DNA of 64,000 bases from Sporosarcina ureilytica. GTDB lineage: Bacteria; Bacillota; Bacilli; Bacillales_A; Planococcaceae. The stretch's first letter is position 1. Every line of letters starts with the position of its first letter. This document shows, piece by piece, positions 6,666 through 60,211 of this stretch. A program made the translations under genes and the position numbers. Where the stretch lies: assembly GCF_001753205.1 (NCBI RefSeq), contig NZ_CP017560.1, positions 1,674,001-1,738,000 on the forward strand. The letters are read 5' to 3'. The notes beneath the pieces were generated by a model. That model worked only from the letters and a program-made list of their open reading frames with translations, ran no database searches and had not been told where the DNA came from.

Positions 6666-6845
6666 AGTAAGGATAGAGGCGCAGAAACCATTAGTACACA
6701 ATCTGAGGATAATGAGGTCCAATGATGATTGTGGAAAGGGGGATTTGCCGAAGTGGAGAGAAACTCATATTTCTCAAAGCTGGTTCTGGGTTGAATAAGT
6801 CCAGGATTGTCATATAGGAAACTATATGGAGGGCTATCTTTTTGC
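6666..6845 (+). promoter_or_regulatory. Lysine riboswitch (L-box)
   Basis: The leader contains L-box landmarks in order: GATAGAGGCGC, TTAGTA, GAGGATAATGAGG, GGAAAGGGGGATTTGCCGAAG, and closing GGGCTATC that pairs with GATAG to form P1. A terminator hairpin at 6871-6899 follows, so lysine binding should cause premature termination and lower dapA expression. Known L-boxes control lysine synthesis and transport genes, and dapA is directly downstream. Confidence 0.9.
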
Positions 6846-12006: not shown

Positions 12007-12031
12007 TCAGATTAATAAAATATTGTATTTT

Positions 12032-12130
12032 CTTATCAAGAGAGGTTGAGGGACTGGCCCAATGAAACCTCGGCAACAGACATTATCGTACTGTGCCAAT
12101 TCCAGCAAGCGTAAAGCTTGAAAGATAAGG
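12032..12130 (+). promoter_or_regulatory. SAM-I riboswitch (S-box)
   Basis: The S-box landmarks are all present: CTTATCAAGAGAGG, GAGGGACTGGCCC, ATGAAACCTCGGCAACAG, GTGCCAATTCCAGCAAG and the closing AAAGATAAGG pairing with CTTATC. A terminator follows at 12153-12191. SAM binding should switch off the downstream gene, so expression should rise in methionine limitation. Confidence 0.93.
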
Positions 12131-12152
12131 AGAGAAATGAACTTTTATGTTG

Positions 12153-55370: not shown

Positions 55371-57698
55371 TTGAAACAAAATAAACATACAAATATCCCT
55401 TTATTACCACTTCGTGGAATCCTCATCTATCCGACAATGATCTTGCATATAGATGTGGGACGTGAACGATCTATTTTGGCAATCGAACGCGCACTTGAGC
55501 AAGACAGCCTCATTTTCTTAGCAACCCAAAAAGATACAAAAATTGAAAATCCAGAACGAGATGATTTATACGATATAGGTACATTCGCCGCGGTTAAATC
55601 GGTTAAGGAATTGGAGAACGGTACGCACCGTGTTTTAATTGAGGGCATTGCGCGGGCTGAATGGACAAAGTATGAAGAAGATGATTTGTTTAGTATCGTC
55701 GATGTCACAACATATCAAGATAATACAGCGAAAGTGGATGTTGAACTAGAAGCGCTGATGCGGACGCTTCGTAAGTACTTCGAAAAATATGTGAAAGCAT
55801 CTAAAAAGCTTTCAAAAGATACGTTTAATTCAATTGCAGAAATTCGTGAACCTGGGAGATTAGCGGATATGGTTGCCTCTAATTTGCCAATCAAAATCGA
55901 AGCGAAACAAGAAGTGCTTGAATTATTAAAAGTTGAAGAACGATTAGAGTGGCTCATTAGCTGTTTACACAATGAACAAGAAGTTCTTTTGATGGAAAAT
56001 AAAATTACTGAACGTGTCCAACAAGCAATGGAAAGGACGCAGAAAGAATTTTATTTGCGCGAGCAAATGAAAGCGATTCAAACGGAACTTGGCGATAAAG
56101 ACGGAAAAGGATTAGAAATTGCTGAACTTCAAGAGAAAATTGAACAAGCAAACATGCCAGAAGATGTTAAAGAAGTTGCAGAGCGTGAATTAAATCGATA
56201 TGAAAGAATTCCTGCAGCCTCAGCTGAAAGTGGCATCATACGCAGTTATATTGATTGGCTTGTCGCGCTACCTTGGTCCGTTGCGTCAAAGGATCAGTTA
56301 GACATCAACCGTTCGGCTGAAATTTTAAATCGGGATCACGATGGGTTAGAACAGGTAAAAGAACGGATCCTTGAATATTTAGCCGTTCGCCAATTAACAA
56401 ATTCACTGCGTGGTCCAATTTTATGTCTTGCAGGACCCCCAGGTGTTGGTAAAACATCCTTGGCTCGCTCTATCGCAGAATCACTTGGCCGTAAATTTGT
56501 TCGTATATCACTAGGTGGTGTGCGTGATGAATCGGAAATTCGAGGGCATAGACGGACGTATGTCGGTGCGATGCCAGGAAGAATTATTCAAGGTATGAAA
56601 AAAGCTGGGAAAATAAATCCTGTCTTCTTGTTGGATGAAATTGATAAGATGTCCAATGATTTTCGCGGCGATCCATCAGCTGCGATGTTAGAAGTATTAG
56701 ATCCAGAACAAAATGCAACGTTTAGTGACCATTATATTGAAGAACCATTTAATTTATCGGAAGTATTATTTATTGCAACTGCAAATGATTTAAGTGCGAT
56801 TCCTGGTCCGCTTCGAGATAGAATGGAAATTATTTCGCTGTCGAGCTATACGGAATTAGAAAAAAGCACCATTGCTAAAAATCATTTAATCCCGAAACAG
56901 ATGAAAGAACATGGTTTAACAGGTGCTGCATTACGGATTAATGATGAGGCGATTCTCGATATTATTCGGTATTACACGAAAGAAGCGGGCGTCCGAGGTT
57001 TAGAGCGTAAAATCTCATCTGTCTGCCGAAGAGCTGCAAAACAAATTGTGACTGGCGAGAAAAAACGTGTAGTCATTACGCCAAATACATTAGAAGATAT
57101 ACTTGGTAAAAAGAAATTTAGGTACGGTCTTGCAGAAACGGTGAACCAAATCGGTGTGGCGACAGGACTTGCTTATACGCAAGTAGGCGGCGACACATTG
57201 CAAATTGAAGTGTCTCTTTCTCCTGGTAAAGGGAAGTTAATGCTAACCGGGAAATTGGGTGACGTGATGAAGGAGTCTGCACAAGCTGCACTTTCCTATG
57301 TACGCTCCAAAACAGAGGCCTTTCAGATTGACCCGAAGTTTCATGAAACCTATGACATTCACATCCACGTTCCAGAAGGAGCCATTCCGAAAGATGGACC
57401 TTCCGCTGGGATTACAATGGCAACCGCACTTGTTTCTGCATTAACAGAACGAAAAGTATTGCGAGAAGTGGGAATGACTGGTGAAATTACGCTTCGTGGA
57501 CGTGTACTTCCAATTGGTGGCGTGAAAGAGAAAAGTTTAAGTGCGCACCGTGCAGGATTAACAACAATTATTTTACCACTTGATAATGAGCGAGACATTG
57601 AAGATATTCCTGAAAGTGTCCGCGAACAATTAACATTTAAATTTGTAACAGATGTCGAAGAAGTCCTCGATATCGCATTGGAGGCTAAGGGCAAATGA
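55371..57698 (+). CDS. lon: ATP-dependent Lon protease
   Basis: This 775-residue protease has the N-terminal substrate-recognition domain ([17 protein letters not shown]), AAA+ core with Walker [10 protein letters not shown] and FLLDEIDKM, and the C-terminal Ser-Lys protease domain (PKDGPSAG with catalytic Ser, [14 protein letters not shown] with catalytic Lys). TTG 55371 follows TGGAGGTG and matches the 774-residue length of LonA. The lonB gene that lies between clpX and lonA in B. subtilis is absent here. The stop overlaps the next start. Confidence 0.96.
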
Positions 57699-58276
57699 AA
57701 GTCCATAACGTAGAAATGATTATGAGCGCGGTGAGACCTGAACAATATCCGGAAGAGGGATATCCTGAGTTTGCGCTCGCAGGACGTTCAAATGTAGGAA
57801 AGTCTTCTTTTATCAATCGTATGATTGCACGAAAAAGTTTAGCAAGAACATCATCTAAGCCAGGAAAAACACAAACACTTAACTTTTATAAAATTGAAGA
57901 ACAGTTGTTTTTTGTCGATGTACCTGGCTACGGTTATGCAAAAGTTTCAAAGACCGAACGTGAAGCTTGGGGACATATGATTCAAGAGTATTTAACGACA
58001 CGTGAAGAATTACGTGCGGTTATTCAAATCATCGATGTTCGTCATCCACCCACTGCAGATGATCGGTTAATGTATGACTTTTTAGTTCATTATGAAATTC
58101 CAGCCATCATCATTGCGACAAAAGCAGATAAAATTCCAAGAGGAAAAGTGAATAAACATTTAAAAATCGTCCGTGAAGGGCTAAACATCCGAAAAGGCGA
58201 CCCATTAATCTTATTCTCCTCCGAAAAAGCAACAGGAATGGAAGAAGCCTGGAAAGAAATCGAAAAAAGGATGTAA
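57695..58276 (+). CDS. ysxC: Ribosome biogenesis GTPase YsxC/EngB
   Basis: This 193-residue GTPase is required for 50S subunit assembly. It has G1 GRSNVGKSS (about 30-38), G3 DVPGYG, G4 TKADK and G5 FSSEKATG. The ATG overlaps the lon stop by 4 nt (ATGA), indicating translational coupling. Its last codons (GGATGTAA) run directly into the first of two structured repeats. Confidence 0.95.
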
Positions 58277-58400
58277 CTAAAAGCTGAAGACGCCGGTTAG
58301 ACGTGACAAGCGTAAGGCGAGTCGACGGAGTGGCGCATTTTGCCACGCAGTCGAATTGACTTACGACTCGAACGTCTGGCGTCTGAAGCTAGATGTAACC
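58277..58400. repeat. Structured repeat, copy 1
   Basis: This element of about 112-122 nt begins AAAAGCTGA (58279) and ends GAAGCTAGATGTAACC. Its stems are AGACGCC/GGCGTCT, AGACGT/ACGTCT, CGTAAG/CTTACG, TCGAC/GTCGA and GTGGC/GCCAC. Single-stranded blocks such as GACAAGCGTAAGGCGAG are shared with copy 2. It lies between ysxC and hemA. Confidence 0.8.
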
Positions 58401-58522
58401 AAAAGCTGAGGGGGATTGCCCAGATGCGACAGGCATAAGGCGAGCTGACACAGCGGCGTTTTTTGTCGCAGTGTCAGATTGACTTATGACCCGAGCATCT
58501 ATCCCCCGAAGTTAGATGTACC
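58399..58522. repeat. Structured repeat, copy 2
   Basis: This copy begins 122 nt after copy 1 (AAAAGCTGA at 58401) and ends GAAGTTAGATGTACC. The stems read GGGGGAT/ATCCCCC, AGATGC/GCATCT, CATAAG/CTTATG and CTGACAC/GTGTCAG. Each stem differs from copy 1 but remains complementary, while flanking blocks are conserved. Confidence 0.8.
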
Positions 58523-58591
58523 AAATGCGTACATCAATCAATATAAAATTGGCGCAAATAATAAAGTAGACTGCATTCGCTTCATTAAACA

Positions 58592-58631
58592 ATAAAACGG
58601 TTGATCATCAAAGGATCAGCCGTTTTATTTG
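58592..58631 (+). terminator. Terminator between the repeats and hemA
   Basis: ATAAAACGGTTGATC pairs with GATCAGCCGTTTTAT with a 7-nt loop, followed by TTGTTT. Confidence 0.75.
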
Positions 58632-58790
58632 TTTAACCTAACAGAAAATGGCGTAAATTAAGCGTTTAATCATTGAACTGAACATATCTAACTAGCAGTA
58701 TCACATTAGACTAATTCCAAAAACAGGCTGTAAACCTTTGTACTTCATAAGGTGTTCACATTTAATGCACCCGAAAGAGTCGAGATATGT

Positions 58791-58796
58791 TATACT
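58791..58796 (+). promoter_or_regulatory. Extended -10 promoter of hemA
   Basis: TGTTATACT is an extended -10 element 44 nt before the hemA start. No good -35 is seen. Confidence 0.45.
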
Positions 58797-58840
58797 GGTC
58801 ATAATGAAATTCAAGAACGTTGAGAGGTGTGAGCACCAAA

Positions 58841-60211
58841 GTGCATACAATTGTAGTAGGCGTTAACCATCGGACGGCACCTGTAGAATTAAGAGAAAAA
58901 CTGTCGTTTGTTGAATCTGAACTGCCGCAAGCAATGCGATTACTTCAACAACAAAAAAGTGTTTTAGAAAACATTATCATTTCAACCTGCAACAGAACAG
59001 AGATTTATGCAGTAGTCGATCAAATACATACTGGACGTTATTATGTAAAACGCTTTCTATCGGAATGGTTTTCGATTCCAATGAAAGCATTTGAAAGCCA
59101 TTTAATCATTCACGAAAACGATGAAGTAATTGAACATTTAATGAAAGTTTCGGCCGGCATGGATTCTATGGTGCTTGGAGAAACTCAAATACTAGGACAA
59201 GTTCGAGATAGCTTTTTAGAGGCGCAATCTATTGGGACAACTGGAACTGTCTTTAACCAACTCTTTAGACAGGCGGTAACATTTTCAAAAAGAGCGCATT
59301 CAGAAACGGACATCGGTGCAAATGCCGTATCCATTTCCTATGCAGCAGTTGAATTAGCAAAACAAATTTTTGGAAACTTGAATCATAAACATGTGTTAAT
59401 TTTAGGTGCCGGAGAAATGGGAGAGTTGGCACTTAAAAATTTACAAGGTAGCGGTGCAGAAAAGGTGACGGTTGTGAACCGAACGTTTTCTACAGCTGAA
59501 GAAATGGCTCGGAAATTTGGTGGCGTTGCGAAGCCAATGAATGAGCTACAATGTGCGCTTCTAGAGGCGGATATTTTAATTAGTTCTACTTCCGCGACCG
59601 AATATGTCATTGATTATCAGACAATGAAATATGTAGAGCGTATGCGTGAAGGCAATTCTTTGTTTTTAATTGATATTGCTGTTCCACGCGATTTAGATCC
59701 ACGTATCGGTGAACTTTCCAATGTATTTCTTTATGATATCGATGATTTACAAAGTATTGTCGATGCAAATTTGGCGGAACGTGAACGTGCTGCCGAAAAA
59801 ATTGGGTATATGATTGAAGGTCAAATTATTGAGTTTAACGAATGGCTTGCAACGCTTGGTGTAGTTCCAGTGATTACTGCGCTACGTGAAAAAGGCTTGC
59901 AAATACAACGGACAACAATGGAAAGTATTTTAAATAAAATTCCCGACTTAACAGAACGTGAGAAAAAGGTATTAAGTAAGCATACAAAATCGATTCTTAA
60001 CCAATTAATTAAAGAACCTATCAGAGAAGCAAAAGAACTTGCAATGGAACCTAACTCTGCTGAAAAACTAGAGTTATTCCAAAAGATTTTCGGAATTGAG
60101 GAAGAAGTAGAAAGAGAGAAAGAAAAAGAAGCAATTGCAAAGTTAGCGAAAAAACGACTAAAAGTTCGTGCGAAAAATAATCCGGTGCCTAAACCTGAGT
60201 GGACATTTTAA
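58841..60211 (+). CDS. hemA: Glutamyl-tRNA reductase
   Basis: This 456-residue enzyme reduces Glu-tRNA(Glu) with NADPH to glutamate-1-semialdehyde, the entry step to haem synthesis. It shows [16 protein letters not shown], the catalytic Cys50 in [32 protein letters not shown] and the NADP site [14 protein letters not shown] 58841 gives the family start MHTIVVG and lies after GAGAGGTG, although the spacing is long (13 nt). It heads hemAXCDBL. Confidence 0.95.

What the first reader, a model, noticed from the sequence alone, without database searches (positions are those of the whole stretch)
58277..58522. Two adjacent repeats whose stems covary: a possible undescribed structured RNA or DNA element
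Copies 1 and 2 are 122 nt apart and share unpaired blocks. Every main stem has changed on both sides so that pairing is kept: AGACGCC/GGCGTCT versus GGGGGAT/ATCCCCC; AGACGT/ACGTCT versus AGATGC/GCATCT; CGTAAG/CTTACG versus CATAAG/CTTATG; TCGAC/GTCGA versus CTGACAC/GTGTCAG. Random drift would break these pairs. This implies selection on folding, as in an ncRNA, a mobile hairpin element or a nucleoprotein site. I do not recognise a named family.
Basis: partly seen in the sequence, partly recalled or inferred. Interest (0 to 1): 0.78.

Follow-up and report, generated by a model that had tools for sequence, protein, structure and literature searches.

The report
Widespread stop-codon-proximal RNA hairpin repeat
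Two tandem hairpins after the ysxC gene belong to a large, apparently unnamed family of about 114-letter repeats that are scattered and tandemly arrayed through the genomes of many Bacillus-like bacteria and whose sequences change in step so that the fold is kept.

Summary
Window 58280-58393 and 58402-58516 are two head-to-tail copies of a 114-nt hairpin. They belong to a dispersed family: 28 distinct places in the own genome, 24 of 25 genus genomes, 123 of 200 family genomes, 36 of 299 class genomes. Among 135 distinct copies 36 of 39 pairs changed on both sides. G-U exceeds A-C (57:15; 28:9 in loci found without the model), so the + strand RNA probably folds. No Rfam family matches the window copies, but Bacillaceae-1 RNA sits inside some longer members. 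Anatomy is polar: the left end lies 0-12 nt after a same-strand stop codon in 30 of 65 cases, the mirror case in 1 of 68; units repeat every ~122 bp; 59 of 180 arrays end in a truncated 5' fragment, 7 begin with a truncated 3' fragment. I read it as a spreading RNA-structured repeat of UTRs and operon gaps, comparable to bcr/BOX/REP. Its mover is unknown: abundance correlates with Y1-transposase and reverse-transcriptase counts, yet genomes rich in copies lack each. Effect and spreading mechanism are inferred.

The parts
57695..58276 (+). ysxC (GTPase), upstream gene; its TAA stop is 3 nt before copy 1
58280..58393 (+). copy 1 of the hairpin element (type A)
   Evidence: fold z -5.7; model R1 130.6 bits (it is one of the model-building rows)
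58394..58401 (+). inter-unit spacer TGTAACCA, resembling TGTAACTA left of copy 1
   Evidence: 88 scanned spacers are 5-14 nt, 8 nt in 46
58402..58516 (+). copy 2 of the hairpin element (type A), with different stem sequences; its outer stem is that of the first copy at the same site in genome G060
   Evidence: fold z -7.6; R1 115.4 bits (model-building row)
58305..58308 (+). GACA, 5' side of a conserved internal loop in copy 1 (3' side CGA)
   Evidence: G26 A27 C28 A29 and G91 A92 invariant in 11 own-genome copies including one of type B; not invariant in the wider set (for example GGCA, GAAA)
58517..58529 (+). spacer TGTACCA followed by a very short 5' start of a further unit (AATGCG)
   Evidence: sequence; scored as 6 nt, too short to count as a fragment
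58594..58630 (+). hairpin AAAACGGTTGATC...GATCAGCCGTTTT that looks like the end of the ysxC transcript, so both copies may lie in its 3' UTR
   Evidence: read from the sequence; the terminator scan did not list it and found no promoter-like site in 58200-58850
58820..60211 (+). hemA, downstream gene

Best explanation
The two hairpins are members of a Bacillales-wide family of dispersed, structured-RNA repeats. A framework of nested stems with a conserved GACA/CGA internal loop is kept while stem sequences drift. The inner part is exchangeable: type A (GCATAAG/CTTATG), type B (GCGCTGGAG/TGAAGCG), and forms that carry Bacillaceae-1 RNA. SHOWN: dispersal, head-to-tail arrays, differences in presence and unit number at the same site, stem covariation, the G-U over A-C bias, and the polar position right after stop codons. 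INFERRED: copies are transcribed with the upstream gene and act in cis as 3'-UTR or intercistronic hairpins that slow 3' decay or tune neighbouring genes. They spread by a copying event that starts at a fixed left end, where host TAAGA/TAACA-like sequence matches the unit spacer, and stops at random on the right.
For: Covariation: 36 of 39 pairs, 0 of 500 shuffles; 19 of 39 in a model-free alignment. G-U:A-C 302:18 in 133 model-aligned copies, about 102:18 without two constitutive G-U columns; 57:15 in stems 1 and 2 of anchor-scanned copies, P 3e-7 if independent, of which 28:9 in loci fetched without the model. In five G000/G060 copy pairs 22 of 400 paired and 23 of 169 unpaired positions changed, with two compensatory changes. 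Abundance. ysxC-hemA site, 30 loci: model hits only in G000, G060, G243, G017, G014 (29 bits) and a remnant in G252 (22.9 bits), none in the other 24. Array units 1 against 2 at two shared sites. Stop codon 0-12 nt upstream in 30 of 65, mirror 1 of 68. Truncated right 5' fragments of 10-54 nt in 59 of 180 arrays, left 3' fragments in 7 of 180. Left flank resembles the right spacer: 0.61 identity against 0.46 permuted.
Against: No transcript was seen; no RNA-seq was available. Copies have an opposite-strand gene to the right about as often (68) as a same-strand gene to the left (65), so many are not ordinary sense 3' UTRs. In the G000/G060 pairs 8 of 19 changed pairs are broken. No mover was found. 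The G-U bias could partly be transcription-linked C-to-T mutation. One covariation measure is not above shuffles. Loci are related and some sites may count twice, so P values are too optimistic.
Confidence: 0.6

Rival explanations
1. A MITE moved by a DNA transposase with short target duplications; folding is a by-product of its inverted repeats.
For: Left flank resembles the right spacer beyond permutation; some flanks look like duplicated TAAGA, TAACA, TAATGA; sites with and without copies.
Against: The outermost bases are not inverted repeats (AAAGC against GCTGGA). No copy with a gene inside: 0 composite 5'-3' half pairs 260-5000 bp apart in the loci held (strict patterns, loci of 1.4-8 kb). 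Stems of copies in one genome differ yet stay paired. The polar fragments and the stop-codon bias are unexplained.
Confidence: 0.2
2. REP elements of a RAYT (Y1 transposase): the ~200-aa Y1 protein of the genus mobilises these hairpins.
For: Such a protein occurs in one or two copies in many genus genomes. Element hits and PF01797 matches correlate over 25 genus genomes (Spearman 0.62, P 0.0009; 0.61 with genome size held, 0.45 with reverse transcriptases also held; not corrected for kinship). REPs also form arrays near stop codons (recalled). I raised the odds from 0.05 to 0.08 for this correlation.
Against: 20 such loci hold one weak model hit (E 0.026), and many of their flanks carry other short palindromes of the GTGCCTGTGCA kind (by eye). 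G015 has 34 hits and no Y1 match; G175, G131 and G212 have 16, 11 and 15 and no Y1 match.
Confidence: 0.08
3. A neutral DNA repeat whose arms are made complementary by template switching at stalled forks, without selection on RNA.
For: Double-sided changes outnumber one-sided ones (46 cells against 11); long hairpins invite template switching (recalled).
Against: G-U exceeds A-C about four to one; the unpaired GACA/CGA loop is conserved; paired positions change less than unpaired ones.
Confidence: 0.12
4. A trans-acting sRNA, for example a CsrA sponge as proposed for the reverse complement of Bacillaceae-1.
For: Bacillaceae-1 is a module of some copies; PMC4333381 (one passage read) proposes CsrA sites on its reverse strand.
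Against: The window copies lack the module, no promoter-like site was found at 58200-58850, and the G-U bias points to the + strand.
Confidence: 0.05

Closest known systems
bcr1-bcr18 repeats of the Bacillus cereus group
   Same: Dispersed intergenic repeats of Bacillus relatives, some MITE-like; 84 of 165 and 62 of 155 copies in two strains were part of an mRNA, and bcr3 correlates with longer mRNA half-life (PMC3446304, passages read)
   Different: bcr1 is called specific to the B. cereus group in the title of a cited paper (reference lists); this family spans Planococcaceae and Bacillaceae. No B. cereus record is among the 80 rows printed, which is a capped list. bcr sequences were not held, so there is no direct comparison
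Bacillaceae-1 RNA (RF01690)
   Same: Bacillales, high copy, structured; sits inside the framework in L160, L195, L072, L070 and L293, L298, L305 (by eye)
   Different: 67 nt; absent from the window copies; of the 29 loci printed, 24 show no part of this framework beside it by eye (3 clearly inside, L289 and L307 next to a 5' part)
REP/BIME elements with RAYTs
   Same: Intergenic hairpins in high copy, often grouped, near stop codons (recalled)
   Different: REPs are 20-40 bp (PMC3733652, title and abstract start in a search listing); this is 114 nt, polar, and not next to the RAYT-like genes here
BOX elements of Streptococcus pneumoniae
   Same: Modular repeats with outer parts and an exchangeable or repeated inner part (recalled; PMC3049150 seen in search listings only)
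   Different: No BOX sequence was compared; here whole units, not an inner box, are tandemly repeated

Membership tests
Bacillaceae-1 RNA (RF01690) | Match to the covariance model at the gathering score (35 bits) | tested here: not met
   Window: no hit at gathering and none listed up to E 10 in 58200-58620. Some longer members of the framework contain it
Any Rfam 15 family | Match at gathering score | tested here: not met
   In the window only Lysine (6666-6844) and SAM (12030-12131) riboswitches; the highest weak hit at the element is rli45, 20.2 bits against 60
REP/RAYT | Hairpins flank a RAYT gene | tested here: not met
   1 weak R1 hit (E 0.026) in 20 RAYT-like loci of 4-8 kb
REP/RAYT | 20-40 bp palindrome with a GTAG or CGTC tag | tested here: not met
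   Unit of about 114 nt beginning AAAGC and ending TAGA or TGGA
MITE / insertion-sequence derivative | Terminal inverted repeats with fixed-length target duplication | tested here: inconclusive
   Flank similarity is real but mainly within about 5 nt and variable; outer tips are not inverted repeats
MITE / insertion-sequence derivative | Autonomous relative with the same ends | tested here: inconclusive
   No composite in the loci held; whole genomes were not searched for it
Element moved by a reverse transcriptase | Reverse transcriptase present where copies are abundant | tested here: inconclusive
   Counts correlate over 25 genus genomes (Spearman 0.69, P 0.0001; 0.66 with genome size held, 0.52 with Y1 also held; not corrected for kinship). 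But no PF00078 match in G021 (24 hits), G205 (18, listing cap), G157 (17), G196 (15), G012 (14), G163 (12), G229 (11)
bcr1-bcr18 | Sequence similarity to a bcr family | not testable with these tools
   No bcr sequence held
BOX | boxA-boxB-boxC sequence order | not tested
   No BOX sequence was compared

The most novel reading that the evidence does not exclude
A previously undescribed kind of bacterial mobile RNA element that spreads by target-primed copying of a circular or multimeric template. The host 3' end at a stop-codon-like TAAGA/TAACA pairs with the unit spacer and primes synthesis; one or more whole units plus a randomly truncated next unit are copied in. That would give the fixed left end, head-to-tail arrays and trailing 5' fragments, while each copy stays under selection as a 3'-UTR RNA fold able to exchange modules with Bacillaceae-1 RNA. 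(Raised from 0.15 to 0.17 because element counts correlate with reverse-transcriptase counts.)
Probability: 0.17. Interest if true: 0.88.

Novelty: new variant of a known kind. Interest (0 to 1): 0.62.

Why it matters
It is an abundant structured-RNA repeat across Bacillaceae and Planococcaceae whose window copies match no Rfam 15 family and which nine paper searches did not turn up (open-licence PMC only, so subscription papers are unseen). It offers a frame for the orphan Bacillaceae-1 RNA, which appears here as a module of larger repeats. Its polar arrays and stop-codon-proximal sense position are measurable clues to how small bacterial repeats spread and whether they regulate the genes they follow.

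Tried and rejected
1. RAYT/Y1 transposase as mover: 51 of 68 genus genomes have PF01797. Element and Y1 counts correlate, but 20 RAYT-like loci are not flanked by the element (1 weak hit) and some element-rich genomes lack Y1. Kept as a low rival.

2. Reverse transcriptase: 47 of 68 genomes have PF00078. Seven element-rich genomes still lack it. Left open.

3. Composite autonomous element: none in the loci held.

4. Phage or plasmid carriage: the core pattern has 0 exact matches in viral contigs; copy 1 has no blastn match in plasmids or phages, copy 2 none in plasmids, at E 1e-5.

5. Insertion at intrinsic terminators as the general rule: terminator-like hairpins start within 25 nt to the right in 21 of 175 arrays, against 11 of 173, 7 of 171, 6 of 171, 4 of 169 and 4 of 166 at shifted positions and 9 of 179 on the left; enriched, but a minority.

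6. A clean fixed-length target duplication: only a short, variable similarity.

7. Bacillaceae-1 as generally part of this framework: my regular expression scored 0 of 29 loci; by eye 3 of 29 are inside it and 2 more lie next to a 5' part.

8. Fragment count: the first scoring gave 77 of 123 anchored right ends in the 10-54 nt range and 13 of 179 left ends. A stricter recount removed 17 right ends that have a 3' half or a Bacillaceae-1-like motif behind them and 6 left ends with a 5' half before them: 59 of 180 right, 7 of 180 left (4 right and 5 left ends were cut or held N; at least L079 and L041 among the 7 are in arrays with missed units).

9. Scanner weakness: the first version had a wrong 3' pattern and was corrected. 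The corrected one still gives false hits among the 26 'O' rows of 293 and misses copies; later counts use 108-122 nt hits only, 180 arrays after removing repeats by a 40-nt left flank. Same-site copies in related species still count apart, for example ysxC in L001 and L115.

10. Paper searches found no description of the framework.

Full report
OBSERVATION. The window holds two head-to-tail copies at 58280-58393 and 58402-58516, 122 bp apart, just after the stop codon of ysxC and before hemA. Both fold far better than shuffles.

FAMILY. A DNA search of the own genome gave 11 matches. Ten copies were aligned: 96.6% of cells pair and 19 of 39 pairs changed on both sides; four of five measures exceed every shuffle, the number of further pair types does not. 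A covariance model (R1) finds 34 hits at E 0.001 in the own genome, of which six are the same place on the other strand, leaving 28. It finds hits in 24 of 41 genomes drawn as relatives: 24 of 25 of the genus, 0 of 16 others. It finds hits in 123 of 200 family genomes, 14 of 19 genera, and 36 of 299 class genomes, of which 18 are outside the own family. Hits per genome are limited by the number of candidates scored, and can include both strands of one place.

STRUCTURE AND SELECTION. In 150 model-aligned copies (135 distinct) 94.9% of cells pair and 36 of 39 pairs have double changes; all five measures exceed all 500 shuffles and all slid structures. These copies were fitted to the model, so the 10-copy MAFFT result is the less biased one. 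The fourth pair of the outer helix is unpaired in 100 of 135. G-U outnumbers A-C 302 to 18 in 133 distinct copies. In stems 1 and 2 of copies found by sequence anchors the ratio is 57 to 15; in the loci fetched without the model 28 to 9, P 0.001 if independent. That points to the + strand as the folding RNA. Unpaired GACA and GA of the internal loop are invariant in 11 own-genome copies, including one with a different inner part, but vary in the wider set. In five G000/G060 pairs of copies, folded on the G000 side, 181 of 200 pairs are unchanged, 2 changed on both sides with pairing kept, 9 changed on one side with pairing kept, 8 broke; 22 of 400 paired and 23 of 169 unpaired positions changed. 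One of the five pairs is window copy 2 with the first copy of G060, matched by its outer stem.

MODULES. Besides type A (window) there are copies of type B (GCGCTGGAG/TGAAGCG inner part), in some arrays next to type A (242 A, 25 B and 26 other among 293 scanner hits, the last group partly false). Others carry Bacillaceae-1 RNA between the outer stem and the core: L160, L195, L072 and L070 by Rfam (positions), L293, L298 and L305 by eye. Bacillaceae-1 itself is found in 71 of 101 family genomes. In one search, 24 of 29 printed loci show no part of this framework beside it, so it looks like a module shared by several repeats.

ANATOMY OF INSERTIONS. 180 arrays or singles were scanned (131 single, 49 arrays); some singles border units that the scanner missed. 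Spacers are mostly 7-9 nt (77 of 88). Among 138 with at least 700 bp on both sides, 16 overlap a mechanical ORF. In the 116 with both neighbours called, 65 have a same-strand gene to the left, and its stop codon lies 0-12 nt before the element in 30 (26 of them TAA). The mirror arrangement, an opposite-strand stop directly at the right end, occurs in 1 of 68. After the last unit, 125 of 180 show a spacer plus an AAAGC-like start, against 20 of 172 at a downstream control. In 59 of 180 this is a 5' fragment of 10-54 nt with neither a 3' half nor a Bacillaceae-1-like motif behind it, at no single preferred length; in 29 it is under 10 nt, in 16 a full unit, in 17 a variant unit. On the left, a truncated 3' fragment of 10-54 nt is seen in 7 of 180 (first, laxer counts). 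The left flank resembles the right spacer (0.608 identity, permuted 0.464, sd 0.0115; singles without a left neighbour 0.547 against 0.456), mainly in the 5 nt next to AAAGC.

TURNOVER. At ysxC-hemA, 30 genus loci were read (the loci returned, of 68 genomes): copies in G000 (A, A), G060 (A, B, fragment), G243 (A, B, B, fragment), G017 (A), G014 (a copy with a different inner module), a remnant in G252, and no model hit in the other 24, one of which (L116) is cut by a contig end. Between G000 and G060, arrays at two shared sites have 1 and 2 units; at one of them the terminal fragment ends at a similar junction (CGACAGGC followed by TTTAAA).

MECHANISM. Shown: dispersal, arrays, turnover, RNA-type pairing selection, polar placement. 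Inferred: transcription with the upstream gene and a cis effect on mRNA decay or the neighbouring gene, by analogy with bcr repeats (PMC3446304, passages). E. coli REPs close to stop codons are recalled to affect translation; that paper was not seen. The polar ends suggest copying that starts at a fixed left point and stops at random, but no enzyme was identified. Over 25 genus genomes element hits correlate with Y1 (Spearman 0.62) and reverse-transcriptase (0.69) matches; genome size does not explain this, and each correlation persists, weaker, with the other held (0.45 and 0.52). Against either as the only mover: genomes with 11-34 hits lack Y1, genomes with 11-24 hits lack PF00078, and RAYT-like genes are not flanked by the element. 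No autonomous copy was seen, and no match in viral contigs, phages or plasmids.

STANDING. The dispersed covarying RNA-type repeat is firm. Function and movement are open. All loci are phylogenetically related, so P values are guides only.

Noticed in passing
window 6666-6844 and 12030-12131: Lysine and SAM riboswitch aptamers at high score (130.1 and 94.1 bits).
   Followed up: no
L004 and L015 around 1400-1750: Two own-genome copies sit at the same position inside another repeat (CCGCCCGCCCCACGGAAA...GGAACGGAAATCAAC), so the element appears nested in a second repeat family.
   Followed up: no
L283-L311 at the Bacillaceae-1 match: Bacillaceae-1 RNA lies inside several unrelated-looking larger repeats (for example GATTGGAGTG...GCGGAAAGCGTCC...GGAAATCAAC), as if it were a module that moves between frameworks (by eye).
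   Followed up: partly
L263-L282: A ~200-aa Y1 (RAYT-like) protein of the genus has GTGCCTGTGCA / GGTGCCTGGCACC palindromes in many of its flanks, probably its own REP family (by eye).
   Followed up: partly
genus genomes G000-G024: Element hits, Y1_Tnp matches and reverse-transcriptase matches rise together across 25 genomes.
   Followed up: partly
L024 and L017 (own genome near 949-951 kb): Copies lie in gaps of an apparent operon whose translated ends look like fatty-acid degradation genes (fadN/fadA-like, from memory), just upstream of the next gene.
   Followed up: no
L194 1277-1344: One pattern match is in a record named Arthrobacter beigongshangensis, an actinobacterium; contamination or misassignment is likely.
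   Followed up: no
L076 319-1225: An array of at least six units (with a run of N inside) starts 7 nt after a tRNA-Met gene at 319-392.
   Followed up: partly
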